Shown: positions 1-64,000 of the stretch, piece by piece | Layout of the letters: every line of letters starts with the position of its first letter | Position numbering within the stretch: position 1 is the first letter of the stretch | Source of the DNA: Deuterostichococcus epilithicus | Lineage: Eukaryota > Chlorophyta > Trebouxiophyceae > Prasiolales > Stichococcaceae | Direction of reading: 5' to 3' | DNA length: 64,000 nucleotides | NCBI GenBank assembly: GCA_033439295.1 | Contig: JAVTLE010000011.1 | Coordinates: 1,984,082-2,048,081, forward strand | Translations under genes and position numbers: made by a program | The notes under the pieces: model-generated | What the model saw: the letters and a program-made list of their open reading frames with translations, nothing else | What the model was told of the DNA's origin: nothing | Databases searched by the model: none

Positions 1-3000
1 GCGTGCAGCCGCCCCCGCAGCGTCGGCGACAGCGCCACCCACACGTGCGCGTCCGCAACCTCCTGCACGAACCTGCTCGCAGGCAGGCACGGATGCGCTG
101 GAGCCTCGATGCAGTCAGCTCCCGGGTGCCGTGGTGACCCAGGCCGGTGCGGCGGCGACTGACTAAAGTCCTCCAATGTGTGGGCTGCCCAGGCAAACAT
201 GTTGGATGCACCGCCCTGGCGGACCGGCGCGGGTGTTGAAGGCGCTGTGTTTTCTAGCGGAGCAGGCACAAAAACCAGCGTTTGGCCCACGCAAAAAGCA
301 GAGCTGCGGCAGGGGCACGAGTGCAGCCGGGCTGCTCACCCGTGCACGGCCTGTCCGGCGCGCAGCGCGGCCAGGTCCGCCGCCGGCGGCACGAGCGCCC
401 GGCGTCGTTGGCNNCCGCCAGCGCCGCGGNCCGGGCGGACAGCTCCAGCACCCCGTGACGGCGCCCCGCGGGCGTCGGCACCGTGCCGAGCACGACGGCG
501 CGCACCGGGCCGTGCTCGGGGAAGGCCTTGGCAAACGCAGCCGCGCTGCCTGCAAGGGTTCAGGGTTCAGGGTTCAGGGTTTGTCAGGAGGTGAACCTGA
601 TGGGAGGGGCTGCCTCTGGCCGGCTGTGGCAGCCGCGCGTTGGCCCCAGCAAGTGTTGTTGGGCAGACGGTCTCGGAGCCGAGGGACTGATTGGATGCTT
701 GCCAGCGGAGAGCCTGCCGACAGACGCAGCAACAGCCCAGGGACACGGATTGCCAGTTCCGGCGCGTTTGGGGTATGGGTAGGTATGCATTGTCGTCCAT
801 GGCATTGCTGGCCTGGCTACAAATGGCGTGGCCCGCTCGGACTTCGAGAGGATTACTGTAGGATTTGCCTTTCTGATTTGCTGATTAACCACTACTGGCA
901 TGCTGCACGCTGCGCAGTGGCCAGGCCAATCTCGCGGGTAGACAGCCAGGCAGCCGGGAACACTTCGGGACGTCAGATGGCTCACCGTCAGGCGCATCTG
1001 AGGCATCGCGCCACTCTGTCGCGTGCAGCCGCGCCCGCTCGCCTGCAAGGCGTGCCGTTCCAGGGTTCGCCACCAAAGCAGGTTCACAGTTGGAGCAGTC
1101 CAAACCCAAAAGCCACACAGCACCACCAGCCACACTAAGAATGCAGCTGAGCCAAGAATGCAGCTCAAGAGGACAAAATAGAATTACAGAGCCCGAATTC
1201 CCACACCGTGATGAGTCTTAAAAAGCACGCACCCGACTCCAGCTTTACATCGGCGGCCAGCGGCGTGACGTGCGTGACGGTGCCGGTCACGATGCGCCCG
1301 GGGCCCGCCTTGCTGGCGACGCGCTTCTCGGCCGCGGCAGAGGCAGCGGCGGCAGCCGCCTCGCTCTGCAGCGCCATGTGCAGCAGCAGCCGCCCGCCTG
1401 CCGCAGATCAGTCCATGGTCGGATGCGCATCGAGCACTGGAAACAAGGCTGCCACAGGGCGCCTGCCAGTTATGCCAGGGGCGGCAGAAGGACTAGCGGA
1501 TATGCATGCTCGTGCAGGCTGGGCCAGAGTCTGCTCAGCATCCGCTGCGAACGACGGGCACAATGAGCCCCGCGCACGCAGAAGCCTGTCAGGACAGCGG
1601 CCAGAGCGACAGGTTGCAGCACACGCTTGCTGGGTTAAAATGTCAAATTTCGTGTTGTGCTTTGCCATCCCCTTCATTGCCAGCCTCCGCTCCCCTTGAC
1701 AAGGGTTCACTCCTGCTGGAGAGAGAAAGTCGTGCTACGGCTGCAGCATCCGTCAGCTTCCTTTCAGACCAGCTTGCAGGCAGGCTCACCTGTCGCCGCG
1801 CTGGGCATCTGCGCGACAGTCGCCTGTAGGGCCTGCCCGATGGCAAAGCGCCGCACGGCGTCGCCCGCCGCCGACGCCAGCAGGTTGTAGTCCCTGGTGG
1901 CCACGAAGCCCAGGGTCGGCGGGTTGGACGGCTTGCGCGCCGGCAGCGACACGACAAGGTAGTCGGGTTTCACCAGCTGCACCGTGACCTCCACCTTGTC
2001 GCCCGACACCTGTGTTGTTTGAAATGTATAGCCACCTTTCACTGAGAGGTGAGGCTTTAAAGAAACACGAGTCGGAGTATGCTGGCACAGGTTGTCCTGC
2101 AGCAGTGGCCGCCGTCTGCTTGGGAGGGACACCTGCAAGCAGAGGATGCAGCAGCTGTCTGGTCGCTGAGAGTCGGAAGAGATCAGACACCGGCAGGCTG
2201 GCCGACACGACACTTGCTGAGCATGGCAGAGCTGTGTGGTAAAAAGCAAACTGGTGCAGAAGGCAGGTTATCCCCGGACGAAGCACAGGCTCCACCCACC
2301 TTCCACTTGTCGCCTTTGGGCTCCTTCTTCTTGCTGCCCGCGGGCGGCAGCAGCGCGGGCGCCAAAGTGAGGTCGACCACACCGTCCGCCTTGCTCACGT
2401 CCAGCACCCGGCCGGTCACGACGGCGCCTACCTCCGGTTTCTCGGCGCCCTCCTGCCGCAGCAACAACCGGGGTGCTCTGGGTCAGCGCGTCTGGTGTCG
2501 CTACCGGCACTGGCTGCCTGTCCAATGGTGACAACGGCACGTCCAGCGCCCGGCTGGCCGCGGCTGGGCACACCTCCGGCTGGACCCCGGCCTCCTGCCG
2601 GATGGAGGTCGAGATGATACATCAGCGCCACATGGGGGAGAGCTGTGCAACTGCATGCGACACATGTAGATATTGCTGTCGGCGCACCTGGCCGGGCGAC
2701 ACCAGGCCGACCACGTTTTCGTCAGCCGCCAGGTCCACAGTCAAACCGAAGTCCTCGTGCGCGTGCGCGGTGCCGGTCGTGGCAGCACCGATGGCAAACG
2801 CATCCCAGGGGATCGCCGCCTCCTCCGCGCTGGCGGCGTTCCTGCGATTTGAAGCAAGCACAAGGCTAGTCCACCAGCTTCGCATGGCCCTAGCTGCTGG
2901 CCATTGCCTGCGATAATGCCATTGTCCATGCTTGTGCCGGAGCCCCGCTGCCTGAATGGCGAAGGTTCTGGGCCGGCGCCGCATCAAAGCTGAAGCAGAA

Positions 3001-6000
3001 GCCCCAGACTAACCGTATCATCATGCCCTGAAGCGCCACTTCCAGGCGGGAGGCCGTCACCCCAGCAGTGCCGCGAGCTGGCCTCGTTACAATATCAAAA
3101 AAATAAAGTATAACAGAACAACATTATAAAGAGGCCAGCAGCCGCCAGGCCACTTCTCCTCCTCGAGCCGACGTCATGCATTCGAGTGGACTGCTGCCCA
3201 GACACAACAGAGTGCCTCACCGCAGCGCCGCCGCGAGCTCCAGGTCGGCAAACAGGGAGGCCAGCAGCGCCGCATCAGGCGACGCCACCAGCGCCGGCTT
3301 GAGCGTCACGCTGAAGCGCCTGCGCTCCTGGTCCACCTGCAGAGCAATGGCTCTCCGACAAAAGGTCATCTTGGATTTCTCTGGTGACACCAAGGTTGCA
3401 GGTGACGCAGTGGCACGTTCGTGTATGCTGGGTGCCCTGTGCAGGCTTCGATGTCGTCGGCAAGACTCAGGAGGCAGAGAAAGGCATTCGATTCCAGTAG
3501 CAGCCCGAGCAGATGTCCGCATTCGGGAATGCCCTGTCCGTGAGCAGCACATGCAAGGAAGGCAGAGTTCACCTGGACGACCTGGGCGCGCACGGACTGG
3601 CCAACGGCAAAGTGGCGCGCCGGGTCGCTCACGAAGCTGTCCGCCAGCTGCGGCAGGCCGGCGCGCCCCGTCAGACCGCCGCCAAACCTGCAAACAGGGC
3701 TGCACGCGTCAGCCACGCAGCCATGCACAGCGTTCCTGTAAGACCGGAGGAGCGGCTGATCCAGAGTGTGGGGAGGCTCGAGGCAGTGCTGCCACGGCCG
3801 CAGGCCTTGTGCCATGCAAAAGGTCCAGCACACATTGCACGCCTGCCCAAGCCACAAGCTAGAGAAGAGCCGGATATGCCCCAGGCCGTGACCCGCACCT
3901 GACGTAGGCGGCGTCGGGGGTGAGCGACGCGATGTAGCCGGAAAGGAGCGCCGACTCCTGCACATCTTCCATCGCCGACGGCAGCTGCCCAACGCCCGCG
4001 GCCGCCAGCAGGCTGGCCTTCCGGCTCAGGCGCACCATGCCGATGCGCTGCACATGTGCGCATTCAGAGACGTCACGTGACACCCAGCGCCAATTCTCCT
4101 GTCTTCACCAAGGAGACAAGGTCGAGGAAGTCACAGCAGCCAGCTCGCAAGCGGACCAGCAGAGAGCTTTGATCTTGGCTGCGCGCCCGCCGCAGCGTGA
4201 TCTGCTTGACAGTCACAGACGCGCCGGCCGTCGGACGGCCGCGACACATCATGAGTTGCTCTACAAGTGCCGTAATCTTTGTCTGCCACGAACTCACCTC
4301 CAGCCGCTCCAGGACAAGCAGTGGGCCCAGCACTGCGCCGGTGGCCACGGTGCCGCGCAGCGCCTCCACCGCAGCCGGGTGGTCGCCCAGCTGCGCCGCG
4401 TCCAGCCGGCCGCGCGCGCCCTCGGGCAGGTCCACCTCGAAGTACTGGGCAGCGCCCTGTGGCGCAGCGGCATGACCAATCAAAACAGATGTGTCAAGCA
4501 GCGGGCGCTGCATTGGTTTGACAGACACAGGCCAAGCGCGCCGCCGGGCAGGTCAAACTTCAAGTCACTGTCCAGCGCCCTGCAAAGAAACTGTGATGGT
4601 GCATCAGAACTAGCGTATCAAAAGTCGAAATGCTGACTTAGAGTTTGCTGAAAAGGGCCTCCGCGCCACTGGACAGGTCCACCCCGAGGTGCTGACCAGC
4701 GCCCTGCGGAAGCATCTGGAGGCATGAGCAGGAGGCTGGATCCTCAGAGCTGGGCACTGGCGAGCTAAGGGAGCCTCTGTCCGCGGATGCTGGCTGGCGC
4801 CCTGGGCCATCAGTGCAAGCCCAAGATGCCTCTGTCACACCTCAGTCAACTCAGGGACTCAGGCCAGTTTCGAGCCGACTGATACGCTTGTCGCCAGGCA
4901 AGCTGCGGGCCTATTACAGGGTCTCATATGTTCAGAACCCTCTCAGAGGCCCTTGCCCTCGCCAGGCAACAGCGCCTCAACTCGAGTCGAGAAGGCAAGT
5001 GGACTGCCAGCACTGCCAAACATCAGGACCGCTCAAGAGCGGAAGGAACAACAGACATGCATCCAGCCATGCTCGCGGCTTCGATTGTGCCGCCCTGGAG
5101 ACAACCGGAGGTCAGATGCGTGGTGAAACCCCCTGTGGAGCTGATGATGAAACAAGACTCGCACCTCCCCGTGCACGGCAGACACTGTGCCACCCTCGAG
5201 CACGTCCCCCGGCTGCAGTACGCCCATCGCGTCGGCAGCCGCGGCGCCATTCGCCGCGGCAGCGGCCTTCTTCTCGGCGGGCGCCGCGGCGGTGGCAAGG
5301 CCCAGGCCCAGGCGGCGGCGTGCCGTGTCGACCGTCAGTATCCGCACCTTGAGCACCTGGCCAGGGGGCATGCGTAAACTCCAGAGATGGGGACTGGACA
5401 CGAGTTGATGCCATTCCATGTAAAGAAACAATTTGCGCTGCAAATTCAGGCACGGCTGAAGCTTCGCCCGCTGACACAGGACCTGCAACCGCTTCCTCGA
5501 AGCTGCGTCGCAGCATCGGCGCCGCTAGCTCGTCACCCGCGCCTGGCCCACTTGCCGGCGTCTGCTTCGCGACCGCAGCGCGCAGACATGGCTCGCGAGC
5601 AGTGCCCCCTGACCGTACATCCTAAAACCCCGCACCCACGCTGCCGCACCTGACCGACTTTGAAGGCGTCCTCCGGCGTCTGGTCCTCCGCCAGGCCCAG
5701 CGCCGAGGCGTGCGCCAGGCCGCGGATGCCGTTGAAGAAGGACACAAAGACGCCCGTGGGCGTGGCGCCGGTCACGGTGCCGTGCGCGCGCGTGCCAGGG
5801 ACGGCGTCCTGCACGGCGCGCGAAGGATGTCGCAACCACGTGTCAGCATGGAAGTCCACAGCATACATGTTGCGACAGATGTTTCGTAAGTACGCCGGTC
5901 TTTGAGAGCGTGTGTGCCCGGGGAGGCGTCCTGCGCAGCGGAGAGAGGAGGTCTGTGTTCGCGAGCTGCCACATGAGCTGGGATCGTTTGTGCCAAAGGC

Positions 6001-9000
6001 ACGCTGCGGAGCGACGCCGGGCTGCTGTGCTGTGCGAGATGCCGCCTCCAGCACCGTGTCACGTCCACAGACGCTGAGGCATCAGAGCCAGAACATGGGA
6101 GCGAATCAAGGCAACTGCACAGACCACATCCCCGCAGAGATGCTATCACTTCGATTACTGCAACAGTTTCTGCAATGCGAGGGAGCACAGTCAATACTCC
6201 CCACTCCTCTACAGCGCCACACAGCAGCAGCTTCGCCCCTTTGTCAACCCAGCACAGCCGGGCGGCAATGCTTTGGCAATGCCGAGCGGGACAGGTGCAA
6301 TGCTCGTGTGACGCTGCAGAAAAATGGAATTTGCGGGGGTCACAAATCCCTGATTCTAACGTTGCAGCCATGACACGACACAGCGATTCGGTATATGACC
6401 CCTGCAGGGGCCTCAGCCGCACAGCAGACATGGACAAGGACTTCTGCGTGATTGATCATCCTTGTCGCCGCAGGCGGCATGGAAGACACCAGCACGGCTG
6501 CATTTGCGCGAATGACCTAGACAAGCGATTCGGAAAAAAAAGGGAAGAGAAAGTCGGGCCGGACTGGTGGCTTGCGGTGCTGCGCAAGTCCCTGACCCCT
6601 GTGAATACCCTGGACTACCCTGCAGAGGCTACTTACCTGCAGGTGCACGATGAGCGGCAGCTTGGAGGCCACCAGCGTCTTCTTCAGCGTCGCCGTCAGC
6701 CGCCGGGCGGCCGCGTCTGCCTCCAGCACGCGAGCTGTCGCCTTCACGCCGACCGCCCACTTGGCCTTGCCCTTGCGGCCGCCGGTGTCCGACAGGTGTG
6801 CCAGCGGCACGAACGCCCTGCGGTTTGCAGACGGACCTCCTTTGACGGGTGGACCCAAGAGGTTTGGAGCTGTGCGATGCCCCGCCCAGCGCCAGTTTTC
6901 AAGGGCGTGCGGTGCTGCAGCAAACAGGTGTCGAGTCAGATGTGGGTTCGGGACCTGGTGTCGGCTGAGCACCTCCACAGATTCAGTGTCCATCGCCCTT
7001 GCAGGCGCCGCACCGCACAGAATATATAGTCAAGGCAGTACTGGGCCTGAGTCACCCTCGTTGACTCCCAATGCGCTGCTGCAGCACTCTCCAGAGGGCT
7101 GCGCCCGCACGAGCATGCTGGGCTGAGGCGCAGCGTTGGCAAGCAAGTCTGGCTATGAGCGTTCAATGCAGAGGCTGCATTGGGCAATGCTGCGCGCAGC
7201 ATGGGTGCACAGACGACTGGAAGTCTCACCCTGGCCCGAAGCTATGACAGCGCTGCAGGCACCATTCTTGTGTATCGACCAATCAGCTGCAGTGCAACTA
7301 ATCCAACCGCCTCGATCCACTTAGCTGGAGTGGATGGAGTGGCTGGACAGCTGCACAACAGCTGTCAGCATTTCACACGGGGCAACAATGCCCCCTCCGG
7401 CGCTGTTCCTCCGGTCACCCCCCCGGGGCCCCTTCCGCGAAAAGCTGTTTCGAAGGAGCTTTCAGACGCACTTGATGCCGGGCGACAGCGTGAGCACCGC
7501 GCCCTTGTCGTCAATTGAGGCAATTGTGCCCGTCACCAGCTGCCCCGGCGCCACGTCTGCGTGCGACATCAGGGCCTGGTCCACGACGCTGGGCTTGAGG
7601 CTCAGCACCGCCAGGCCGTCCAGGGGGCGGGACCCGATGACACGCGCCCGCACTACCTGCCCCGGCTTGAACGCCTGCGTTTGCAGCAGGGATGGCCACT
7701 CTGAGACACCAGGAGGCCTGCACCGCCTGCCCCGGCTTGGGAATGCCTGCAAAGGAGCACCGCAAGGGTGGATCAACAGTCCAAGTCTTCGTCCCACTCC
7801 AAAGTCAGCTGCCTGCTTGTGCAGCCTCGTTGTTTCATCAATCGCTGACGCCAAACCTGGTGGGATCTGGAGCGACTTCTCCGCTGTGGTTTGAAGTCTC
7901 GCTTGCGGTACGGCTGTCGCTGCAGAGCGGTGTACCTCAAACTCCATGAGCGCACTGTGTAGCAATCGACCGAGCCTCGTGCATCGTTTGGGACCCACCT
8001 TCTCAACCTTGTCGATGCGCGTGTCGCTGAGCGCCGAGATGTGCGCAAAGCCTGCCGCCGCCGCCGCATCGGCCCCGCCACCCGGCAGCCGCAGCACGAC
8101 GCCGAGCCCTGGGTCCACACGCCTGACGACCGCCTCCTCAAACACCGTGCCCACCTGCGATATGGCAGAGACGTGAAAGGTCTAGGTGTGCGAAGGCCAG
8201 CGGGACTGCACATGAGGGCTGGTGCCGCTGAGGGTGCGGCGGTAGCGGCGGCCGTCGCCCGCAGACTCAGCTCGGACTCCTGCGACGGAATGCTCCGTGC
8301 TGGACACCGGCAATCCCTTGATGAGGCGTTTCCGCTTCAGCTGCCGTGAAGTTTCGCACACCAAAGCCTCTGCCGCCCTCTGGTGGTGGCTGCTCGCGTG
8401 TGCAGCACAGCGCCAGTCGATCGTCCACGATGCCCGAACGAGGATGCTCAGAAGGAGCTGTTTGCTGTCTGTCGCCGGACAGCAACGCTGTCCAGCTGGC
8501 ACCTCGTTCGGGCAGCTGCCAAAACCTGCGCTTGCGGCGCCTCTGGAGGGGCTGCTGTTGCCAGCAAAGAAGATAGTGCATCGGGTGCAGCTCTGCGCAC
8601 CGGTGGCAGCGCGGCGTTCAACGAGAAGGCCAGCAGGTGACGCTGCAGCGACAGCGCCACAGTTTTTGCCGCCGGGTCCACCGCCAGGATGCGCGCCCGC
8701 AGCCGCTGCCCGACCTCAAACGTGCTCAGCTCCTGCGCGTCAGTAGCAGGGCGCACGCGCATTGGCCTTGGCGGTGCGAGTTGATTCGCTGCATGGCTAA
8801 TGGCATGCGCTGGCATGCGCGGAGTGGGAAGCGCAGACGGCTTCCCTGTGTTGCACTTGTCCAGGGGTGCAAAGGTAGCACACTAGAGCAGCACAAAAAC
8901 AGCAGAGCAGGGTCTGCGCCAAAACGTATGCACCCTTCAATGGGTGTTCAACTACCAGCAGCACATGGGATGCAGGCCCAGGTGCTCTGGAGGGCCAGCC

Positions 9001-12000
9001 GATTGAAGGGTGCCGCAAATCAGAGACGCAGTCCACATGCCCGCCTGCAACGGCGAAGCATGCGGCAGGTCCTGGTGCAATGAACGATGTGCAAGCACGC
9101 ATGACGGCTGGCTCGAACAGCGGACTCCACGGCCACATGGACATGTCTGCCTCAGGTGGCACCCTTCAAAGTGCCGGACAACTCGCAAGGACGAGTACAC
9201 TTGCCATTGGCCCCCATGCCCGGCCATGCTATACCACTCCGTCCCATGCACTGACTTCATGCGGTCTGGTTGCTCCGTTGCTCCCTGCAGCCAGGCGCAT
9301 GCCTGGCCCAGGTGGGGGGGATCAGGTGAGGTAAGTCGAACAAGTTAGTATTAGACAAGGGCAAGTGGAGCGCAATGCCGAATCTGCAAGCATGAGCGGC
9401 ACACCTGTCCCAGGTGGAAGGGGTCTACTGTGCCGGTGAAGTATGTCAGGAAGGAGACCAGCAGCCCGTCCGACAGCACCGCCTTGACGCGGCAGTTCAG
9501 CAGCGCCCCCGGCAGCAGCCCGCCTGGACGGCGTCAGCAGCAGTTTGACTTCAGGTGTGTCCGCTTGAAACATGAATGCCTCACAGACTGCGCCGCCCTA
9601 GTACGAGGAGTGAACAGCGGCCTCCCAGTTTAGTGCCCGTGCGGGTGTCGCAACCGAGTGGCCTGTGCAGCAGGAACATTAGCGGTTTGTGAATGCCATC
9701 AGCATTGCGTCAGACTGCGCCGATCGACAACGACGGCAGCGAGTATCGCGTGCGATGCTGCGGTGCGCTGTGCGTGGACAGCTTCGCTGGCAGTGCCACT
9801 GCGATACTTCCGCACAGCCGCCCTCGATCGGTGAGAGGAGCTGAACCATAGAAAGTCTATGTGACTGATGATGTGGCGGTACGGTGCGAGCCGCCCATGC
9901 AAAGCATGGACATCATTCGACCGTGCACCTGACATCTGGAATGTCGACCAGTCCGCCACAGTTGCGTGCCGGTCGATGCCTCTTCTCAACCGTCGAGGTG
10001 CAGGTTTCGCTGGTGAAAGCATTCATGCGGCATCTTGTCTCACCCAGATACCGCATCCGCTCCAGATCGACCCTGAGTCTTCAACGAAATTTGTGACGGC
10101 GCCATCCTCGAGCGTGTCGCCCGCAATGGCGTCGCGCGGCTTAAATTTCGCTGCTCGAGCTGCAAAGTGCTCAGCAGCAGTCCGACCACCCGTCACAGCA
10201 GCCTGAATACAGCATCACCTGTGCTTGTGTTTAGGGTTTAGGTTTCGACTCACCGAGGTCCGTGACGGCGTCCTCTTTCAGCGCGCCGCCCGCGACGGCG
10301 TCAGGCGCCGCGGTGACGGCCACCATGCGTCGGTCGGACGCCGAGAGGACTGCCACGTCCAGCAGCGCGCCCGTCCTCAGGGTTTTGGGGGCCGGCCCCA
10401 GCGCCGCATCGGCGTCCGCCTTCTTGAGGAAACCGGACACGCCCTGCAGGAAACGAGAATGGCGGTCAGCATTGTCCACAGCATTTCTTGCCCGTTTGAC
10501 ATTCCCCCTCCACAAGCAGGAAGCCCCTGCTGCACGGCAAGCCGCGCTAGTCCCGAAAGGTCCAGGAAAGGTCCCGAAAGGTCGCGTCGCTCACATGACA
10601 AGCGAACCTAATGAGCTTCGGAAAGGCGTCTCAATTCTGAGCACCTTGACGCCAAAGCTGAGCGCGTAGCCGTGGTCCTCGACGCTCTTGACCGCCGCCG
10701 GCAGCACCGAGCCGGCCTGGATGGCATCGGCGCCGCCCGGGCCGTTGAGCCGCGCCACGTGCAGCGACAGCGCCACCCGCCTGCCCTTGTCGCCCTGCGG
10801 GTTTTGAGCAAGGAACAGGTGGATGTCCTGCAAGAGAGTTGTCGAGCCACGCTTCAGCTGGCTGCGACGCGACATCTCGGTTGTTGCAGAGGTGCGCTGC
10901 GGCGCCGGCAGAGGCCGCCAGCGCCTGCGACAACCTGCTGTTTTCTGACAGCCCCGCGCAGTGGCGTGTCGGAAGCGCGCCTGCTAGCAGCTGAATGCGC
11001 ATGGGAGCAGCTGGTGAGGCTGGTGATGTGGGATCGGACGGAGCAGCCAGCCTCAACACGGCTTGGAACAGCCGAAGGACGAGTGTGCCGACAGCGTCCA
11101 AACCCACACACCAACCATAGTAATATGAGGCGCAAGCCAAGTGCAGGGACTCCACTGCTCAGGCTGGCACTTTCGTGCTGCTCTGCAACAATCCACGCTG
11201 ATGTCGGACGCCAGTGCCCGTCGCTGTGGGTTCCACCAGCCGCAGGTGTCCCTCACCCGCTGCAGGCCCACGGCAGTGCAGCGTATGAGCTGGCCAACGC
11301 GGCACACCATGTCAGCGATGTGCCTCGTTGTGGCCCTGTTCGCTGCAAATGATCCCCAAGTACTGCAGGTCCACATCGCTGCAGCGCCCGCAGATCAAGC
11401 TTTGCAGATGTTCTCAGTTTCGACGAGGCCCGGTGCGCGCCATTAGCCCCCTGCGTAGAGTCCCACCTGCTGCAGGCCCATGACGGTGCAGCGCACGAGC
11501 TGGCCTACAGCGAACAGGTCCGGCAGCTGCGGCACGTTGGCAGGCCATGCGCCGCCGGTGCTGAGGTTGCCGTCCGGCGCGCCCGCCTTCTTCAGCAGGC
11601 CCGCCAGCACGTCCGACGCCTGTCATGTCCAAACAGACCCGCTGTTAGAAGAGCCGCTCCGACTACACCAGTGTGACAGCACGTGCCATTGGGAGCTTCG
11701 CGCGCCCGCCTGTTCAGCATTCTTCAGCATTCCCGCCAGCATATTCGACGCCCGCCAAGTCTAAGGAGGGCGCTGTGAACGCGCTTTTGTAGGAAGGAAT
11801 GGAACTGAAGCTGCGCGGGGAATTTCAGGACAGAGGGACAAGGATCCAGGGAACGTCATATGCTAGGTCTGGCCATGCTGCAAGCTGACCGTGAGCCCCG
11901 TGTTACTAGCTGCCTTCAGCGTTCCAACATGCATCTCCAGGGTTTGGTGTTCGCAGCGGCGGGCGAGCCACGAGCAGAGACACAGCGATGCGCGGCTGCT

Positions 12001-13307: not shown

Positions 13308-16300
13308 ATGCGTGTCGGAGCCGACCGATGCATGCGACGCATGCGGCTAGTCTGCCTGGCAGCGGCGGCGTTGCAGGCGTCCATCGCCGCCGCGGCCTGC
13401 GCTGACGCAGGCTCCTGCGGCACAGATGAGCCAAAGCTATCAGACATTCCTGAGAAGCGGCCGTGCCCCTGCGAGTCGCCGGAGCTGTGCCGGCCAATCC
13501 TTCACCGGCATGAGCGGGAGGTTGATTTTCAAGCGCCTTCTCTGCCAGTGAATACGGGCCAAAGACGAACACGCGCTGCCACACGTCAATATCCATGGCA
13601 TTCTCCCACAGATCCGAGCGCCGCATCAGGCTGCAAGTCGTCCACGTCCGAGCACTGTTGCCGTGCCAGGTGTTCGGCTTTAGCACCAGGCGGGAGGACC
13701 AGTATGCTCGCTACGACTGGACACAGCTCACCACGGTGTGCATCAACTGAAAACACACCCAGCTGAGTTTGAAGAAAGAATTGCATAGGCCAGGTCATCC
13801 TGCAGCTGACACCAAGGCCTTGGGTATCCACTGCGTGCCCAGAATCAAGTCTCGCAATCCTGCAGGTAGCTTGGAACACGGACCCGGCGCTGATGTGCCT
13901 GGCGCACTCGAAGACCGCGCGCGTGGTGCTCAATGCCGCCGTCGCCGACAAGCGGTGGCTGACCAACACGACGGCAAGGCGGCAGTGGGTGAGCCGTCGG
14001 CCGCGCCCACTAAGGCGCTCCCGGTCCTACAGTTCTGCAACAAGACCAGCGCTTGGGGCCCAGCCGCAGCGCTGAATGCGATCAAAAGAGCAGCGCAATG
14101 CAGCTCCACTTGGCTGTGCCAGCTGCGCCCCGGCCTCGCACGGAATGCCGGTGGCCAGCAGCGCATTTGGCAGAGGCACCGGAGCACTTCGTGCACACGA
14201 CACCCATCTCGACCTTCCTCCTGCTCGCCCGTCCCCCGCTCCATCTGAGGGTTGATGGCCATTCTGGCATCGTGGAGAGTGGCGCAGCTGGCAAGGCGCA
14301 AGCGCGCTCATGCACATGATGACATCACGAACTTCCCTGTTCGACTCTCAAGAAATCGCCGACACAGCTTCGGTGATGCCCGAGCAGGTGGCCGCGCACC
14401 TGGCAGAAGCACAAAAGCACTTCATGGACGGCACCAACTTCGACCTGGAGGTGCCACTGCAGGTGCGTTTTTCAAGTTTTGCTTATATTATTCCAGGAAA
14501 CCGAATTTTTCAGGGCAGAACATTGACTTACCAGGTCCGTTTCCACTGCAGCCCAACTCGCCGGAGGCACTTGCGTACACTGCCCTGGTTGCAGAAACCG
14601 CAGCGGCATTCCACGCCGCCATACCCGGCTCTCAGGTGAGCGGAGGCCGCGCCTTTCCTGAGCTCGTCCTGGTGTCTCGCTCAATCGTGCTTTCGGATTG
14701 CACACCTACAAGGCAGTGCGAAGGTCTATCGTGCGACTTCCGATAGGAGACTGTCTCAGCTGTGCGGCCCCAGCTCGACGCCATCCATTTGCCGGGCGCA
14801 GATCTCAGTGGACTTTGCCTGGTCGCCGCACGGTATCGATGGCCGGCACTTTGACTGGGCGGGCCTCGCGGCGGCGGCGGACGTGCTCTTCGTCATGGCC
14901 TACGATATGCAGTCCCAGGCGAGTCGCCCGATCTGCAAATCTCGGATTTTGAATGCAATTTGACGGAGCCGTGCGTGTTGACGTGCTGCTGGGTGCCGCG
15001 CTTTCACCCCTGAGCGCATGCCTCTTGAGCAGTGCTGCAGAGCGGGGATGCATTCGATAGTGCCAGCAAGAAACTGCAGCGTCTGAACACCAGAAGCCAT
15101 TCGGCCAGCGAGCACCCCACGAGAACGTGCACCCCTGCACCCATGCTGTCTATGACGTGTATGGGGCCAGTGGTCATGCATGGGGCTAGTGGTCGCCTGT
15201 GCCAACACTCTGCTGAGGATCCTGGAACCGACAAAACGGAACCTATTCAGTTCCCCTGCGTAGATCTGGGGCTCGTGTGTGGCGAGTGCCAACACGCCAC
15301 TAGCGCTGACGGAGCGGGGTGTCGACCAGTGGCTGGCGCTCGGCGTCCCCGCCGACAAGCTGGTGCTGGGCCTGCCGTGGTGAGTCTTTGTTTGACGGGA
15401 TCGCCTCTGCTGATGAACTGGTCCTGGGCTGCCATCATGGCGACTTCCTCCGTGCAGCTCGGCCTGCGGGAGTGCAGCAATGTAGGGTGCAGGATGCAGG
15501 ATGCAGGATGCGGTTTGTGCTCGAAGGAGTGTCAAGCGCTGCCAAATGCGGGCTGCCTTGGGACACTTGTCTGAAGGTATATGATCTCTGATATTGTCCT
15601 GGACAATATGTGGTGGTTTCAACACCAGCCCCCTCGCAGGTACGGCTACAGGTACGAATGCATTAACGGCCTGCGGCCAGCGGACGACCAGCACACCGCC
15701 TGCACGCTGGCGCTGGAGTCCTTCCGCGGCTGTCCCTGCAGCGACGCCGTCGGCCGACAGAAGGAGTACCAGGAAATCGTGCAGCGTGAGGCAGTTTCCG
15801 GGCGGGGGGACATGTGACTGTGAGTTTCGGCCGTGGGCTCCAGTAGGGGTGGGAAGAGGCTTGAAACTCCTGGAGGGGCGCCACAGCTTGAACAAGGCGC
15901 CACAGATGTGAACCTGCGCTGCAGCGGCTGCAGCGCTGTTGCACCTTTCTGTGAGGCAGCCGTCCGCAGCGGGCAGGGGGACGGTCGCAACACCTTCCGG
16001 TCGGCATTTGCACTCTGCGGCGGCATGGCGGAGCGTCCTGATGATGAGCTTCGTGTGCCATTTGTAGTGTCGCATGTCCCGCCAATCGATCGAATCGCTG
16101 CCGGCAAGGCGGCCCACCTGCAAGCTGGTACTCAATGGCCACCTGATCGCGGGCGTGCCGTGCCCGCAGTGCTGAAGAACGGCACGCGGCGATGGGATGC
16201 CGCCCAGAAAAGCCCCTTCTTCACCACACACGATGGCAACATCAGCCACCAGGTGCGCTTCGCCGCGGGCGTTTCGAGCGCTGACTCGCGGGCTTGCTCA

Positions 16301-18547: not shown

Positions 18548-18600
<53 letters not shown>

Positions 18601-36763: not shown

Positions 36764-38260
36764 TCAACGCCCAGCAGGTCCTCGTCGTTGCCACAGGAGA
36801 CATGAAGTGGTACGACAGGAAGGCTCAAATTCGACAAGGGGGGCGCACGTGATCCAGCCCTCGATGCCCTCCAGGTCCTCGTCGTCAAATGTCAGCGGGT
36901 AGCGCACCAGCGGCCAGCCCATCTTGCTGACCACAAACCTGTGGACCGCGCGAGAAACCCCGACTCCTTTTCCGTTTTGGCTGAGCAGCACTTGAGCAGC
37001 ACGGGCGGCCGACAGCACGATGATTGCGCCTCGGCTTGCCGACATGCGTGCAACGGGCTGTTGAAGGCCATGCACAGCGTGCGGCGGTCGGCAACCCATC
37101 GGCAATGGGTATGTTGACCAGCGGACACGGGTTCGAAGATGCTCACTTGTTGAAGTTCCAGTCCACCTCAGCTGCAGGGAAGACCACACAGCAAGCGTCA
37201 TCAATAGCGCTGGTGATGGGTCAGGCGCAATATTGCAAGGCTCTGCATACTGAACATGCAGTCAATCGCTGATCAGCATCAGCAGCGGCCCCGGCCCGCC
37301 CCCTTCAATCACGACCGTCAGCGGCACCTGGATACCCGTGGTGGCTGGGCTGGTTTGCGATCAGGAAGCGCCACACCGGGTGAGCCCCAGGCCCCTTCAC
37401 ATCCACCTGAACACGAGGGTTTGCAGGAGTTCAACAGGTAGACTGAGGCGGCCGCAGCGCAGCCAGAGCGCATTGGTGCAGAGTCCACTTCCAGCTCTGA
37501 TGACGACATGATGCCACGCTTGTTGGATGGGAGGGAAAAAACTACACCCCAAAGACAGCACACAGGGTGGCTCCACGATCGTACCTTGGAGAAGATGGGG
37601 AAGGTGGTGTTGTAAGTGTTGCGCATGATGTCTTTGATCTCCGCGTTGCTGCCCGGTTCCAAGCCCCCATACTGATTGCACGGGAACGCGATGATCTGCG
37701 GATCACGGCACATCGTCACGTCAGCAGCTGCCCCCGCCGGACCTCTGTCACCGTTTCCCGCCTTTGCACCACGAGAAGCGTCCTGTGACCAGCGATGCAC
37801 GCGGCGGCAGGCAATTGCAGCGTGCACGAAGCATCAGCATGTGACACGGTCACGACTGAACTGCACTTCCGAAGAGCCGGTGGCGCCGCGCCACCAGAGG
37901 CGCGAGAGCTCCGCATCAAGTCATAATTCAGCCGCACCGCCTCATCCACTCGAGCATCGAGCAGTATTGAGGAGCTCGTCAGCAAAGCGGCAAAGGGCTG
38001 GCCGCTGGTCTCGAAGGGAGCACCGGCGGCTGCCCGAAATGTGGACGTCTGTCCTTGTGACCTGTCATGGGTATGGAACCCACCTCCATGCCGCGCGGCT
38101 TGTACTTGTCGTAAATGTAGTTGAGCCGCGCATAGTTTTGCGCCGTGTAGCCGCGCTCGTGGTCGTTGCTGGCCACGTTGACAACAACGACGAGGCGGCC
38201 CGCGTAGCGGCTCAGCGGCACGTGCGCTCCGTCGATATCTGTTGCGCTCTGCGGGAACAT
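36764..38260 (-). CDS. Glutathione-peroxidase-like protein lacking the catalytic Cys/Sec
   Basis: Exons 38084-38260, 37585-37695, 37328-37406, 37147-37171 and 36764-36938 join in phase to about 188 residues. The fold signature is complete: SATDIDGAHVPLSRYAGR, VVNVAS, FPCNQYGGLEPGSNAEI, FPIFSKVDVKGPGAHPVW and DWNFNKFVVSKMGWPLVRY. In GPX enzymes the VNVAS motif is followed within two residues by the peroxidatic Cys or Sec. Here it reads NVASNDHERGYTAQNY, with no Cys and no in-frame TGA. The usual resolving Cys before FPIF is also absent. The Gln (FPCNQ), Trp and Asn (WNF) of the tetrad remain. It is either a non-peroxidase paralogue or uses another mechanism. The start is the first in-frame ATG; an upstream exon with a targeting peptide cannot be excluded, since a CAG precedes SATDIDG. 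Confidence 0.85.
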
Positions 38261-40945: not shown

Positions 40946-41184
40946 AACATCTCGAAGTCCTTTAATCAGGTTCATTGAGATTGCAGATGCATGGCATGCG
41001 AAACTGGGGCGCTGCACCCAATGGTTTGCAGTCCTCCTGGAGTAGCCGCCTGCTGCTGAATGAGGGCCTTGCTCAGTCGGCAAAGTCTGGCGCGAGGTAG
41101 AACGGCATCACTTCGCCGTCGTGTGAGGCTGGGCGCCGGCTTCAGCGGCGCACACTGGCAGCAGCGCTTCGAAGCACACCTGTC

Positions 41185-50100: not shown

Positions 50101-52154
50101 TCAGCAGGTCCAGGGCGGAGCTCTCCATCTCCTCCACGGTAGGGTTTACAACGAAGCCGCGCCCCTCCAGCAGCCCCACGCGCACGCCCGCCACCACGCT
50201 GCTCGCCGGGATGTCTGCGCCGGAGGGCAGTTGCATGTTTGATCTGCGCCAACCAGCGCAACAGGCCCGGCTGGGTAAGCAGCCGCCTCCGCTGTTGTGG
50301 CGACTCAGCATACTGACCGCCGATGTTGGACTGCCAAATTTTTACAAATTGTTGGCACAGCCTTTCAGCTTATCAACGCAGCATCCAAACTGGCGTTGGC
50401 ACAGCCCCGATAACACATATCTCCACACATGCTTCAAGCAGTTTTGCAGTCTGCAAGTCAGCCCACCTGACACCGCAAGCGCGGCGCTGGCGGCCGTGAT
50501 TGCCAGTGCCTCGGTCGCGTTCTCGTTGTCATACGACATCACCCACTGCAGCACCTGCAGCATGCAGGGAGCCGAAATGCTGGGCACCAGCACCAGACCT
50601 TTGAGCGGCATCATCAAGCAACCGTCCCGTGGCTGCAGGACGCGGCAGCGGGCACATGATGGCCCCAGGTGGTGGGCAGCAGGCAAGGGGGATGCAGCGT
50701 CGGGCTCTGCTGCAGCACGCCGCCGCAAGGTGCAGCGCCGGTCTCAGGGTGAAAACACCACAACAAAGCATCAATGCATGAGCGCCTGGGAAACCCTGAA
50801 TGTTTTGGGGTTAACAAGTCCTTGGGCGTCGGAGACGAAGGAGACGAAGGCGGGGCGCAGGGTGCGGGTTCACGAGGCGCGGCATTTCGATCCATTCTCA
50901 GAGTGCGACATTGCAACAGCACTGCTGCATGGCAACCGACCTGGGTGTCGGCGAACCAGCCGGAGGCGAAGGCGGGGCGCAGGGAGCGGTCCACCAGGCG
51001 CGACACCAGCGTCTCGCTCTCCTTTGGCCGCCCGTCCCGCTTGATGAAGCCCGCGCTGCGTGTGCGGGGACGCAGTAACGTGTCAGCCGTCATGTGCATG
51101 GGAGCGAATGCTTCTTCCGCTATTCTTGGCTGACACTGGCCGGTGGAACAAGCTTGTATGCTGGCTGACGTGCACCTGCACGATGTACTGACTGCATCAG
51201 CACAGGCATGCGGCGGCGCCACCCGGGGAGATTTGCTCTGCGGCTGCGGCCTGACCTGGTGCGGCCGGCGGAGGAGAAACGCTCCGAGTAGTGCACTTGC
51301 AGCGGCAGGAAGCTGCCGTCGCCCTCCGGCTGCTCCCCGCAGCACGCCGTCGTGTACAGCATCTGCAGATGCCAGCGGCAGCGGCCAGCTCGAGAGATGA
51401 TTCTGCCCACAGAGCACCATCGGCATTGATATCATGCAAAGAGGGCGCGGTGCACAAGTGCAGGGCCACGCGAGAAGGCAGGCATCGGCAGGCTCCGAGT
51501 CTTCAGCAAGTCTGGAAAGCGCTGGACGGCTGAGGCCGCAGCATCTATCTGTTGGGCATCGCGCGGAGCCGACTCACCGTGTCCCCCAACCTCGCCATGA
51601 CAGCGCCGTTCGCCTGGCGGCCGATCTCGCCGGTCTCCAGCGTGACCTGCGCAATGCATTTGCATGATGATGCCGCCATTCGAGTGCGACGTGGGCATGC
51701 ACACGCCGCGTGTGTGCCGTCGAGAGGACCTGAAATGCCTCAGCAAGTGCGCAGCACGTGCATGCAGTCTGGCGAAGGGCTCCAGAACACCGTCGTGCAT
51801 CATCAATCATCGCACATGCACAATGTGTGGCTGATGAGTCGCGCCACCGCGTCAGCGGACCTGTCTGCCGCCGACTGTCATCGAGAGGGTCTGCGGCTTG
51901 GGCGGGGCGGCGGGCTCGACGGCAGTGCCAGCCTCGCCGCGACACTGCAGGCGGCACCTGCTGCGCCTGCAAGCGCCTAGAACGCCGCCTGGCGCGCCGT
52001 GGCGCCGTCTGCTGGGGTGCAGCAACTGCTGGGGAAGGCCCCTTCGCCGCCATTCGGGGGTCTCTGTCTGGGATGGCGAGTTGCTGACGAGCTTTGAACG
52101 GTCGTTGCAGCCGCATGCGGCCGCAAATGACCTGTTCAGCAGTGAAGCCTGCAT
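44152..52154 (-). CDS. PNP: Polyribonucleotide nucleotidyltransferase (PNPase), organellar
   Basis: 3'-5' phosphorolytic exoribonuclease and poly(A)-adding enzyme of chloroplasts or mitochondria. Seventeen exons in phase: 51861-52154, 51578-51646, 51256-51362, 50941-51055, 50467-50554, 50027-50214, 49379-49507, 48958-49158, 48276-48450, 47893-47993, 47320-47512, 46812-46984, 46050-46196, 45768-45857, 45379-45491, 44771-44977, 44152-44506; about 914 residues. About 80 residues rich in Arg, Ser and Ala precede the core, as in a transit peptide. First RNase PH core: [40 protein letters not shown]. Second core: SSMASVCGG phosphate loop and [10 protein letters not shown] with the two catalytic Asp and the Lys. 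KH domain: [15 protein letters not shown]1 domain: [19 protein letters not shown]. The tail is Gly/Arg-rich ([18 protein letters not shown]). Many introns carry echoes of adjacent exon ends. Confidence 0.93.
44685..44760 (-). repeat. Echo of PNPase exon 16 end
   Basis: True exon end: gagcttgggcttgccgtcga then agacgccgacgcacatgacg (44798-44840). Copy: gttctgggcttgccgtcaaa then gacgtcgacgcacacgacgt (44702-44742). It covers the S1-domain codons before the donor. Confidence 0.85.
46660..46755 (-). repeat. Echo of PNPase exon 12 end (catalytic DMDFK region)
   Basis: True exon 12 (46810-46905) and the copy share tgatgtccatct, then g(a/g)aggcg, ccgtc, the gacat and tcgccgag landmarks and gcatcctc in the same order. 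The copy is about 150 bases downstream along the gene and has lost the reading frame. It is a decayed duplicate of the part coding for [16 protein letters not shown]. Confidence 0.85.
47050..47085 (-). repeat. Echo of PNPase exon 12 start
   Basis: The exon edge gactgcttcagcggcacgcc (protein GVPLKQS) recurs upstream as gactgtttcagcggcacacc, again GVPLKQS, about 80 bases away. The exon is thus echoed on both sides. Confidence 0.75.
47715..47785 (-). repeat. Echo of PNPase exon 11 start
   Basis: The true exon start encodes [17 protein letters not shown]. The copy 200 bases upstream would encode [17 protein letters not shown] in one frame (cgtggcccaactcccgcccg against cgtggcccacctctcggcgg). Confidence 0.75.
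48540..48690 (-). repeat. Two echoes of PNPase exon 9 start
   Basis: True exon 9 start: [20 protein letters not shown]. Copy 1 (about 48545-48605): [20 protein letters not shown], with the CAG acceptor kept. Copy 2 (about 48655-48685): [12 protein letters not shown]. Both are in the upstream intron; the second is shorter and more decayed. Confidence 0.85.
49745..49970 (-). repeat. Two echoes of PNPase exon 6 end, one with an AAGA expansion
   Basis: True exon end: [19 protein letters not shown] then the donor. Copy nearer the exon (about 49887-49965): [20 protein letters not shown], where the strand holds four consecutive AAGA units (49911-49927). Farther copy (49749-49811): [19 protein letters not shown]. 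Order and spacing match the exon, so the tetranucleotide microsatellite arose inside an echo. Confidence 0.85.
50800..50885 (-). repeat. Echo of PNPase exon 4 end
   Basis: Exon: ggcgaaggcggggcgcaggg then agcggtccaccaggcgcg. Copy: gacgaaggcggggcgcaggg then tgcgggttcacgaggcgcg. A further ggagacgaa doublet has arisen inside the copy. It lies in the downstream intron and includes the donor area. Confidence 0.85.
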
Positions 52155-55900: not shown

Positions 55901-58900
55901 AGGCTTGCGACCGTCCTCCGACCACCCAAGGAGGAGTGATGCCTTGGCCCCACAAGTCGTTCTCTTGGCCCCGTACAGCCTTACGAGACCCTCGCGAGGA
56001 CTTCAAACTATGGTTGCGGCCCTTCCAGTACCACGACCACGCGGCGCTGCCAGCGGGCGTCGTGCGCCTGCTGCTTTGGGCGCGCCAAGCTTCAGAGAAA
56101 GACCCCAGCACCCCACGCGCAGGCCTTCGAGCTCCCGTGTGGACGCCGCGCTGCCGGCCGCAAGTTTCGAGGCCTCCTTTGGTCGCCAGAAACACTGGAC
56201 AAATGCCTGGCACCCCGCGCGCAGGCCTTCCAGTACCGTGAGGACGCTGCGCTGCCGGTGGCGGCGTTTGGCGCCTGGCGGGGCCTCATGCGCGCTGCGG
56301 CCACCGGCGACCTGCTGGTCGCCAAGGCGCGGCTGCTGGCGCAGCCGCTGCAGCACGCGCTGGCGGCAAGCAGCCGGCCGGAGACGCTGCAGGTGCCTTT
56401 ACTCATTCATTCGATCGGGGACGTGCCAGAGTCGTCTGTTCCAACGGTCCAGTGTCGCGCCTCGTGTTGCGGGCTGCGGGGGCGGGCCGATGCAGTCTCT
56501 GGGTTGCGCACGCCGCGACAACTGCTGGTCGTTGCAAATCGCTGCCCTTCGGCCACGAGGCGTGCCGCGACATGAAGCGCGAGATGCACCTGCTGCTGCG
56601 CAGGCCATGTTCGATGCCTGGACCCTGCTGGTGGCCCTCGCCGCGGCGGCGCCCNCNNGCGCCGCGCCGGCGCTGGCGGCGCCGCCCGCGATGGAGGCCT
56701 ACGTGGCGGCGCCCCTGCGGACCGCCGCCGGCCGGCGGGCGCCCGGCAGCAGCCGCCCGGCACGCTGCACGCGAGCCTGCTGGAGCCAGTGAGCCCCCGT
56801 CGCCGACACACTGCCTCCGGTGTTGCCGTGTCTGCAGCTCGAAACATGAAGAGGGAGCCTCGGGAGCACCGACCCTGCATGTGTCTACACCATGGGCTGT
56901 TGTCATGGTCGAACGCGTCCGAGTTGCTGTCACCCTGCTTGTGCTCCCGTCACAGATGCTGGCGACCCTGGAGCAGCAGCTCAGCGCGAGCGATGCCACG
57001 AGGCGGGCGCTGGCGGTGCCGCTGGCGGCCACAGTCTGCACCTCGCTGCTGGAGCACCCCGCCGAGCCGGCGTCCCAGTCGCCGCAGCAGCCGCAGAACA
57101 AGCCCGGCCCCAACGGCTCCCAGGACGCGGACAGCGGCGCGGGGCCCGGCAAGTCGCTGCAGGGCCTCCTTCCGGCGGCGCTGCAGCTGGCCGCGGCACT
57201 GCTGCCACAGGCGGGCCGCCTGGCGGCTCTGCTCGGCGGCAGCCTGTCGCACCTCGTCGCCCAGCTGGAGGTGGGTACTCTTAGACAACACCAAGTAGTG
57301 CATGCATGCATTTCATGTCTGGGCAGTCAGCGACAGGCCCCGCATGGCCTGGTGACTGGGGTTGACGGCTGTCAGCAGCAAGAGTTTGGAAAGGATGCAG
57401 AAGTAGTCGACTTCCGGTGGTGTGCTTCCGGCCCCCGCTATGTCCACCCGCATTCAGCATGGCGCAGCCGAGCCGGATTTGTCTCCTTCTGCGGCGGATA
57501 TATAACAACAACTATGAGGCGGCTATATCGCCCTCTGCAGGAAGCCGATGGCGAGCTCAGCTCGGCACTGCAGGAGCAACTGGCGGCCCCGGCCACGCAG
57601 CTGCGCTCGCTGCTGATGATGCTGGCGGCAGCGGCGGAGCATGCTGCTGGGGAATCACCCGCTGCCACCTGGCTGGCGGCATGCCTGCGGCCGGTGCTGG
57701 AGTCGACTGACAGGCGCGCCCTGCACAGACTTGAGATGGATCAGATGTTCTAGTATGTGGCTGCCGTGCCGCTGATTGAGTGCCTGGTGCAGGCTGCCTC
57801 GCTGCTGACCTGTCGTGCTGCGCCTTGACTGCACCGGCGGTCCTCTGCTGCTAGCCACCACCTTGCCCGCCCAAGATCGCTCGGTGGCCGTTTTGACTCC
57901 TGAAATCGTGTCGACCCCTGACCCGCAGGTTGGCGGCCGTCGCGGCCGCCGGCTCGGGCGCCTCCGCAGCCGCCGGCGCACTGCTGGCCGGCCTGCTCAA
58001 GGCGGTCCATGACAGCACGCCCCTGCCGGCGCTGCTGGACGACGCTCACGCCGCGCCGCTGTTGCAGGCGTGGGCGCCTGGCGGCGACGACTCCAAGGAC
58101 ACGGGGTAGGAAGAAGAACATGTGTGTTGCCGACAATGTGTATGACAAGCACACCTGCACCGCTGCGGCGCTCACCGCTTCGCGGACCTGCCTATTGATG
58201 GGTGCGGCCTGCATCGCTGATCCAGGAGCACTGCAGCGCCGGCGGCCGTCGCACTGGCCATCGCAGCGTGGCGTGCGGCGCCCGCTCTGCAGCCCGCCGC
58301 CGCTGATGTGGCGGTGCTCGTCGGCGCGGCGTGCATCCGCCAGGCCCTGGCGGACAGCAGGCCTGCCGGTGCGTGTCTCGGGGGCTCCTCACTGCCAGAA
58401 CACTGCTTCTGTAGGGCACGACCACAACGGCGACATCGGGCTGAGTCTCCTCAATGCATCACATGTAAGCCTGGAGACCATGCACCACGCCGCAAGATCG
58501 TACATGCAACAGCGTTGACGCTCTTGCCGCGGCTGCAGGCGCACGGTGGGCGGCTCTGGCGAGCCTCAGGGCCGGCGTTGCCGGCGCGCCGCAGGCGAGG
58601 TCGCCGACCGCGGCGCGTATGCCGCTGTGGGAGGCGCTGGCCCGCGTCACCGCGGCGCTGCTGCAGGTCGGACCTCTGCTGCTTGCTGTCCTTTGCATCT
58701 GCCAGCCCCTTCCAGCATCGGCGTGTTGAACATCGCGTCAGGGCACCCGTGACCCGGGCCATGGCTGCAATGTCGCGACATTCTCTACCGCCCTCGCTCT
58801 CGCCTGCAAAGGGACACGCGGCACGACCCGAAGCACTGCAACAGGCGCCTCTCACCGGGTGTCCTGTAACGAAACAGGAGCAGCATGCACACGGCGGCAA

Positions 58901-63951: not shown

Positions 63952-64000
63952 TGACCCGTAGCACCAACTGGTGCATTGCTGAGCTGCGGCCAGTGAACGG

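What the first reader, a model, noticed from the sequence alone, without database searches (positions are those of the whole stretch)
1..64000. Splice-junction echoes: introns repeatedly contain diverged copies of the adjacent exon edge
In at least four unrelated genes (RRP5, chitobiase, PNPase, RIF1-like) I find more than a dozen cases where the last or first 30-90 bases of an exon, including the splice site, recur once or twice in the neighbouring intron. Divergence is about 20-30% and the reading frame is often broken. Acceptor-side copies lie upstream of the exon and donor-side copies downstream. The pattern implies recurrent local tandem duplication across exon/intron borders as a general process in this genome. 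It would lengthen introns, generate decoy splice sites and could seed new introns or alternative exons. Intron gain by tandem duplication of AGGT-containing exon segments has been proposed before; a genome-wide, multi-copy, edge-biased form is, to my knowledge, not a standard description.
Basis: partly seen in the sequence, partly recalled or inferred. Interest (0 to 1): 0.88.

Follow-up and report, generated by a model that had tools for sequence, protein, structure and literature searches.

The report
Exon-edge copies inside neighbouring introns
In this intron-rich algal genome, about one sampled exon edge in twenty has a worn, non-coding copy of itself, usually 70-170 bases away in the neighbouring intron, which points to repeated local duplication at exon borders that probably lengthened introns and left decoy splice sites.

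Summary
A gene finder trained on the window plus 160 kb from 16 contigs, then run on 50 kb of fresh sequence, finds copies at 44 of 909 exon edges (53 copies; 15/203 window, 25/490, 4/216 fresh). Without gene models, repeats 50-300 bp apart at 40 bits number 40 direct and 0 inverted in 274 kb. Exon-start copies lie upstream, exon-end copies downstream; controls are 0 at score 120. PNPase homology confirms which copy is the exon.

New facts: the first copy lies 72-169 nt away at 39 of 44 edges (median 121.5); second copies lie at about twice that. Copies are non-coding: 33/49 are frameshifted. Similarity reaches the splice junction and mostly ends just beyond it, more sharply than neutral whole-unit duplication predicts. 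Divergence fits a single age, about 25%; 0 of 53 reach 88% identity.

Best reading: a past burst of ~120-bp tandem duplications across splice junctions, visible because the exon stays conserved. Part of the edge bias may be this visibility. I found no evidence of new introns or exons in use. The sharp splice-site boundary is unexplained.

The parts
4528..4582 (-). RRP5: acceptor-side echo 1 of exon 4298-4456 (offset 123)
   Evidence: score 155, identity 0.80
4656..4730 (-). RRP5: acceptor-side echo 2 of the same exon (offset 252, about twice the first)
   Evidence: score 164, identity 0.80; 22 nt of intron also align
5904..5953 (-). RRP5: acceptor-side echo of exon 5650-5808
   Evidence: score 115, identity 0.70
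7716..7750 (-). RRP5: acceptor-side echo of exon 7472-7674
   Evidence: score 109, identity 0.88, short (below the 115 cut used for statistics)
10081..10140 (-). RRP5: donor-side echo of exon 10254-10443
   Evidence: score 147, identity 0.72
11703..11775 (-). RRP5: acceptor-side echo of exon 11467-11619
   Evidence: score 160, identity 0.71; intron side also aligns
11252..11391 (-). RRP5: donor-side echo of exon 11467-11619
   Evidence: score 180, identity 0.74
14147..14215 (+). GH18 gene: acceptor-side echo of exon 14388-14462
   Evidence: score 150, identity 0.79, offset 237
36731..36788 (-). Glutathione peroxidase gene: donor-side echo of exon 36849-36938
   Evidence: score 141, identity 0.78; about 22 nt of intron also align
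44687..44749 (-). PNPase: donor-side echo of exon 44789-44977 (GC donor copied too)
   Evidence: score 216, identity 0.83; donor
46651..46748 (-). PNPase: donor-side echo of exon 46812-46984, with frame-breaking indels
   Evidence: score 194, identity 0.80; alignment
47020..47081 (-). PNPase: acceptor-side echo of exon 46812-46984 (does not reach the splice site)
   Evidence: score 118, identity 0.72
47599..47662 (-). PNPase: acceptor-side echo 1 of exon 47320-47512
   Evidence: score 121, identity 0.74
47722..47804 (-). PNPase: acceptor-side echo 2 of exon 47320-47512
   Evidence: score 147, identity 0.66
48505..48605 (-). PNPase: acceptor-side echo of exon 48276-48450, intact CTGCAG acceptor
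   Evidence: score 238, identity 0.76; alignment
49882..49913 (-). PNPase: donor-side echo 1 of exon 50027-50214
   Evidence: score 106, identity 0.81 (below the 115 cut)
49745..49809 (-). PNPase: donor-side echo 2 of exon 50027-50214
   Evidence: score 165, identity 0.75
50821..50884 (-). PNPase: donor-side echo 1 of exon 50941-51055
   Evidence: score 176, identity 0.83
50618..50738 (-). PNPase: possible donor-side echo 2 of exon 50941-51055
   Evidence: score 118, identity 0.63 (weak)
56104..56175 (+). RIF1-like gene: acceptor-side echo 1 of exon 56225-56392; the filler is similar as well, so this looks like a tandem unit of 102-103 nt
   Evidence: score 195, identity 0.77; filler z 4.1-4.2
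56016..56070 (+). RIF1-like gene: acceptor-side echo 2 of the same exon (offset 205)
   Evidence: score 147, identity 0.78

Best explanation
The echoes are decayed remnants of short local tandem duplications, with a unit of about 120 bp, that straddled one splice junction. Such an event leaves a complete exon with an intact junction nearest the exon body and pushes the spare half-exon into the intron, so the protein is unchanged. Shown: direct orientation, side rule, preferred spacing, second copies at about twice the distance, non-coding decay, genome-wide spread. Inferred: the mutational origin (end-joining repair of offset nicks or breaks is a known route to small tandem duplications), a burst in the past rather than steady input, and survival because exon recognition uses the inner splice site. 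The constrained exon keeps its half recognisable, while the two intron halves drift apart and vanish.
For: 40 direct vs 0 inverted repeats at 50-300 bp, 40 bits, in 274 kb (59 vs 1 at 32 bits). Side rule and controls. First-copy offset: 39 of 44 edges at 72-169 nt, median 121.5. Two-copy arrays have matching periods (12 arrays, median difference 11 nt; permutation p 0.002; against random first offsets p 0.03). Echo-echo identity (mean 0.71) is on average below exon-echo identity in the same 12 arrays (0.78 and 0.74; means of the values printed). Mismatch by codon position 0.237/0.215/0.288 vs third-position excess in all six paralogue alignments. Filler similarity z of 2.5 or more in 5 of 36 pairs, one of them low-complexity. 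A whole-unit tandem duplication, 80 nt, period 83, 89%, exists in intergenic L009. Echo introns are longer.
Against: The intron half is missing far more often than equal decay allows: tail-window z 0.08 +/- 0.07 (n=217) against 1.61 simulated at t=0.25; 18+ nt of intron aligned in 25% of 53 copies vs 68% simulated. The most similar exon-edge pair (L003, 95% over 41 nt, offset 127) loses strong similarity 11 nt into the intron (a lenient alignment runs on with many gaps). Duplications wholly inside introns are nearly absent: 3 of 328 introns, power 0.59 at t=0.25. A fixed unit is only weakly backed by the anticorrelation of exon part and filler: -0.41 in 36 pairs under 180 nt, but -0.05 over all 44, and trimming alone gives -0.11 (p 0.02-0.03 after trimming). 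Five of 44 first copies lie at 195-314 nt. The fresh sample had fewer echoes and no donor-side ones.
Confidence: 0.5

Rival explanations
1. Splice-bounded copying: a process that recognises exon ends (RNA-templated repair, or copying tied to splicing intermediates) writes exon edges into the neighbouring intron, so the intron half was never copied.
For: Identity falls from 0.81 in the first exon bases to 0.38 six to ten bases into the intron. Simulations in which only 12 nt of intron were copied (my choice of length) match the observed extension (0.21-0.24 vs 0.25); those with the whole intron half copied do not (0.60-0.81). The most similar exon-edge pair shows the same boundary.
Against: 48 of 53 copies reach the junction within 2 nt, but both simulated models also give 0.97-1.00, so this does not discriminate. 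No spliced-mRNA or exon-circle junction beside the echoes (its one z of 9.2 fits the self-overlap seen). No inverted copies at 40 bits. Same side and near. Matching periods within arrays point to a DNA unit. 5 of 36 fillers are similar.
Confidence: 0.23
2. The echoes are, or recently were, functional: alternative or regulatory exons kept by selection, which is why they outlast the intron around them.
For: Echoes stay recognisable where the adjoining intron does not. Some keep good splice sites (8 of 28 acceptor copies score 4 or more). The L003 echo has an acceptor and a donor.
Against: 33 of 49 frameshifted; nearly flat codon-position pattern. Usually only part of an exon is copied. Splice dinucleotide kept in 22 of 41 aligned, about what 75% identity predicts.
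Confidence: 0.12
3. Classical intron gain by tandem duplication of an AGGT-containing exon segment (Rogers model).
For: Same class of mutation. The learned splice signals CAG|GTG and GCAG|G share CAGG.
Against: That model puts the copy of the downstream exon start at the very 5' end of the intron; only 3 of 53 echoes lie within 20 nt of the far end, median 255 nt. Flank of echo vs neighbouring exon gives mean z 0.07, n=45.
Confidence: 0.06
4. Assembly or haplotype artefact, or chance.
For: Scattered Ns (9 in the window). The lack of very similar copies could reflect collapse of near-identical repeats in assembly.
Against: About 25% divergence with many frameshifts and a nearly flat codon pattern. 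Reverse-complement and other-intron controls at zero. Seen in 15 of 22 stretches, the window included.
Confidence: 0.02

Closest known systems
[quoted passage not shown] abstract and passages seen)
   Same: A tandem duplication crosses an intron-exon boundary, leaving a small former exon segment inside an intron.
   Different: One recent case, with a new intron in use. Here about 5% of sampled edges, on acceptor and donor sides, old, and no new intron is shown.
Tandem genomic duplication and internal gene duplication as intron source (PMC3443670, passages seen; Gao & Lynch 2009 and Hellsten 2011 only as cited there)
   Same: Same mutation class; the review's table lists 188 events in several species.
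   Different: The model there duplicates an exonic AGGT segment so that a new intron arises; here half-exon copies sit in existing introns at a preferred spacing and decay in place.
Small tandem duplications from end-joining of breaks with protruding ends (PMC8355091, passages seen; rice work of Vaughn & Bennetzen 2014 only as cited there)
   Same: Local, direct, short (under 100 bp in that paper): a plausible mutational source.
   Different: Those are adjacent tandem copies; most echoes here lack a recognisable intron half. No repair test was possible.
Tandem exon duplication and mutually exclusive exons (PMC6071210, passages seen)
   Same: Exon sequence repeated beside itself; exon similarity is held by coding constraint while introns are under weaker selection.
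   Different: Functional exons there; mostly partial, often frameshifted copies here.
Introners (PMC9860276, search listing only)
   Same: An effect on introns across a whole genome in some species.
   Different: No shared element: fillers match essentially only themselves in the 224 kb tested.

Membership tests
Local tandem duplication across a splice junction | Direct, nearby, same-side copies | tested here: met
   40 direct vs 0 inverted at 40 bits; side rule
Local tandem duplication across a splice junction | Whole unit, intron half included, is copied | tested here: inconclusive
   z of 2.5 or more in 5 of 36; group mean z 0.08 +/- 0.07 where equal decay predicts 1.6
Local tandem duplication across a splice junction | Arrays with a constant period | tested here: met
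   12 two-copy arrays, permutation p 0.002, two of them with clearly unequal periods
Intron gain by AGGT exon duplication | Echo at the far end of the intron, next to the other exon's edge | tested here: not met
   3 of 53 within 20 nt of the far end; mean z 0.07
Intron gain by AGGT exon duplication | Intron absent from orthologues | not testable with these tools
   No relatives of this genome held
Introner | Repeated element shared by many introns | tested here: not met
   37 fillers match only themselves in 224 kb, apart from one low-complexity filler and one that spans another echo
Mutually exclusive or alternative exons | Complete copy with the frame kept | tested here: not met
   33 of 49 frameshifted; exonic extents 27-120 nt
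Mutually exclusive or alternative exons | Inclusion in mRNA | not testable with these tools
   No RNA data

The most novel reading that the evidence does not exclude
A single past burst copied exon edges, with the copy ending at the splice junction, into neighbouring introns across the genome at a preferred spacing of about 120 nt. A mutational process would then have sensed exon borders, as no small-duplication mechanism known to me does.
Probability: 0.16. Interest if true: 0.88.

Novelty: new variant of a known kind. Interest (0 to 1): 0.62.

Why it matters
Border-crossing duplications are discussed mainly as sources of new introns. Here about 1 in 20 sampled exon edges carries what looks like the fossil of one, which gives a countable record of how often splicing absorbs such hits, how introns lengthen and how decoy splice sites die. 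The sharp limit at the splice site and the uniform age make concrete tests possible in related algae.

Tried and rejected
Spliced-mRNA insertion and exon-circle insertion: no neighbouring-exon sequence beside echoes on average (mean z 0.07 and 0.04). The one z of 9.2 there, and high 'same intron head' scores, fit self-overlap where an echo lies near the far end of its intron; one search shows this for the top-scoring cases.

Mobile filler element: no family.

Neutral decay of a whole unit at one rate: simulated through the same pipeline and rejected. Faster intron decay alone would need roughly 2.5-3 times the echo rate. Paralogous introns in L012 suggest a smaller excess (window z 0.43, n=84 windows at 12 splice edges, against 0.78-1.61 simulated at t=0.35-0.25), a rough calibration. 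The echo-echo control (z 1.6, n=69) used positions already aligned to the exon, so it is favoured over the tail windows; the simulation is the fairer yardstick.

Fixed unit length from the exon-part/filler anticorrelation: the -0.41 was computed after dropping 4 first copies beyond 180 nt. Over all 44 it is -0.05, and trimming alone gives -0.11.

Frameshifts: 36 of 49 included gaps on the intron side; within the exonic part it is 33 of 49.

Selective loss of decoy sites: a first count (AG kept 10/28, GT/GC 7/16) suggested it. The gap-aware count (22/41, with 12 outside the alignment) does not; claim dropped, and the notebook entry is superseded on this point.

Intron-only duplications: one search was faulty (masked letters matched each other, overlapping windows matched themselves) and is discarded; one search replaces it.

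Literature: the searches listed no paper that I recognised as a genome-wide description of intronic copies of exon edges; I judged most by title and start of abstract. The passages that I saw of PMC3446292, PMC4111847 and PMC3488318 say nothing of it. The paper asked for under PubMed id 20852019, which I recall as the Chlorella NC64A genome paper, is not held, so a description there cannot be excluded.

The species is unknown. 39 light-harvesting (PF00504) matches show a photosynthetic eukaryote; 'green alga' is inferred.
Full report
WHAT WAS TESTED. The window is C10:1984082-2048081 of a 46.79-Mb, 21-contig genome, an intron-rich photosynthetic eukaryote (39 light-harvesting matches). A hidden-Markov gene finder written here and self-trained on the first 224 kb converged on 443 exons and 392 introns with clean learned signals, donor CAG|GTG and acceptor GCAG|G.

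ARE THE GENE MODELS GOOD ENOUGH? The PNPase protein built without homology aligns to solved bacterial PNPases from residue 4 to 717, E 6e-173. Six of its exons carry echoes, at seven edges. Five of those junctions (residues 104/105, 196/197, 407/408, 471/472, 529/530) run through the alignment without a gap at the junction; 708/709 is also gap-free but near the end of the alignment, and 315/316 lies next to a variable stretch. RRP5 and GH18 are confirmed by Pfam, glutathione peroxidase too; RIF1 is only suggestive.

THE SIGNAL WITHOUT GENE MODELS. Self-comparison at 40 bits or more, offset 50-300 bp, counting aligned pieces: window 13 direct and 0 inverted; L002-L017 24 and 0; L018-L022 3 and 0. 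At 300-550 bp: 0, 2 and 1 direct, 1, 1 and 0 inverted. At 32 bits, offset 50-300: 59 direct and 1 inverted in all.

THE SIGNAL WITH GENE MODELS. At score 120, exon starts match the upstream intron in 18 of 347 cases and exon ends the downstream intron in 14 of 343. Wrong-side matches are 3 of 347 and 1 of 343; reverse complements 0; other introns 0.0. Over all sequence, 44 of 909 edges carry 53 echoes of score 115 or more: window 15/203, L002-L017 25/490, L018-L022 4/216. The fresh set shows the acceptor-side pattern at a lower rate and no donor-side case in 105 tests. No echo of that score was found in 7 of 21 sampled stretches: L005, L007, L009, L013, L018, L021, L022. L021 does hold two gene-free direct repeats that I did not follow.

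ANATOMY. Of 53 alignments, 48 reach the splice site within 2 nt. The first copy at an edge lies 72-169 nt from its source at 39 of 44 edges and 195-314 nt at 5; median 121.5, quartiles 102 and 145.5. For the 36 discovery pairs under 180 nt the mean is 122.5 +/- 22, the exonic part 61 +/- 20 and the spacer 60 +/- 20. Their anticorrelation (-0.41) is only partly due to the trimming (-0.11 expected, p 0.02) but vanishes over all 44 (-0.05). Twelve edges have a second copy at about twice the distance (score 100 or more); the two periods agree better than permuted ones (median difference 11 vs 25 nt, p 0.002) and than random first offsets (p 0.03). Echo introns are longer (397 vs 228 bp median).

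THE COPIES LOOK DEAD. Within the exonic part, 33 of 49 carry a frameshift, with 62 indels against 738 substitutions. Mismatch is nearly flat over codon positions, 0.237/0.215/0.288. Paralogous exons in L012 show a third-position excess in all six alignments (46/249, 40/250 and 93/248 summed). Splice dinucleotides survive in 22 of 41 copies aligned there.

TWO SURPRISES. (1) Similarity collapses at the junction. Identity is 0.81 in the first three exon bases, 0.63 in the last three intron bases, then 0.47, 0.38, and background beyond 20 nt (the intron side there is ungapped). A shift-tolerant test gives z 0.08 +/- 0.07 for 217 intron windows, against 1.61 for tails simulated at t=0.25; t near 0.7 (z 0.10) would fit. 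Echo-echo windows give 1.6 (n=69), though from pre-aligned positions. Extension of 18 nt or more is seen in 25% of copies; simulations at t=0.25 give 68% with the intron half copied and 22% with only 12 nt copied. Against this, 5 of 36 pairs have a recognisable intron half, one of them low-complexity, and one RIF1-like array looks like a plain tandem repeat of 102-103 nt. (2) One age. Mean identity is 0.755 with sd 0.051; a single divergence of 0.25 gives 0.756 and 0.048. A steady process gives sd 0.09 with about a quarter of copies at 0.88 or more; observed 0 of 53. Young copies could be called as exons and missed. The gene-free list does hold 6 of 40 pieces at 90% or more, but all are 51 nt or shorter. 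Collapse in assembly remains possible.

EDGE BIAS. Duplications inside introns decay in both copies. At t=0.25 my power to see one is 0.59, at t=0.4 only 0.05; I see 3 in 328 introns. If introns decay somewhat faster than echoes, their absence is expected. So an edge-seeking process is not required by this count, though it is not excluded.

MECHANISM. I favour tandem duplication of about 120 bp across one junction. The cell keeps using the inner junction, so the event is silent, and the outer half-exon decays. The source could be end-joining at offset breaks, known to make small tandem duplications (PMC8355091, passages). This is inferred by analogy. The weak point is the missing intron half. 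Splice-bounded copying explains that better, but not the matching periods or the direct orientation.

KNOWN OR NEW. The nearest published case I found is a single potato gene (PMC4974935, abstract and passages). A review treats tandem duplication as an intron source (PMC3443670, passages). The nine searches of the held library listed no genome-wide record of this kind that I recognised; one relevant algal genome paper is not held. Hence: new variant of a known kind.

Noticed in passing
L003:9767-9934: Most similar exon-edge pair (95% over 41 nt): the downstream copy has its own acceptor and donor and was called a 35-nt exon; a candidate alternative exon.
   Followed up: partly
L012:5522-9358: Array of related exons in three repeats (72-83% alike), alignments stopping a few bases into the introns; probably tandem genes.
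   Followed up: partly
L009:4019-4181: Intergenic whole-unit tandem duplication, 80 nt, period 83, 89% identity.
   Followed up: no
L013:1-1759 and 7342-9125: Duplicated block about 7.3 kb apart, 40 substitutions and 3 indels in 1759 aligned bases; nature not examined.
   Followed up: no
L021:3715-4070: Two overlapping direct repeats at offsets 212 and 278 (72-78%) outside the echo set.
   Followed up: no
window 18549-18600: Pure CTG repeat (17.3 copies) coding a glutamine run in a ferroportin-like gene (PF06963) on the minus strand.
   Followed up: no
window 30197-30573: Exact 20-25 nt direct repeats at spacings 171 and 186 in a predicted long intron.
   Followed up: no
window 32761-32807 and 33138-33180: Inverted repeat, 81% over 47 nt, in a stretch called intergenic.
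   Followed up: no
window 555-581: AGGGTTC repeated 3.9 times inside a predicted intron, resembling a telomere-type motif (resemblance recalled).
   Followed up: no
whole sample: About 10% of predicted donors are GC rather than GT (learned profile), and one PNPase GC donor is copied in its echo.
   Followed up: no
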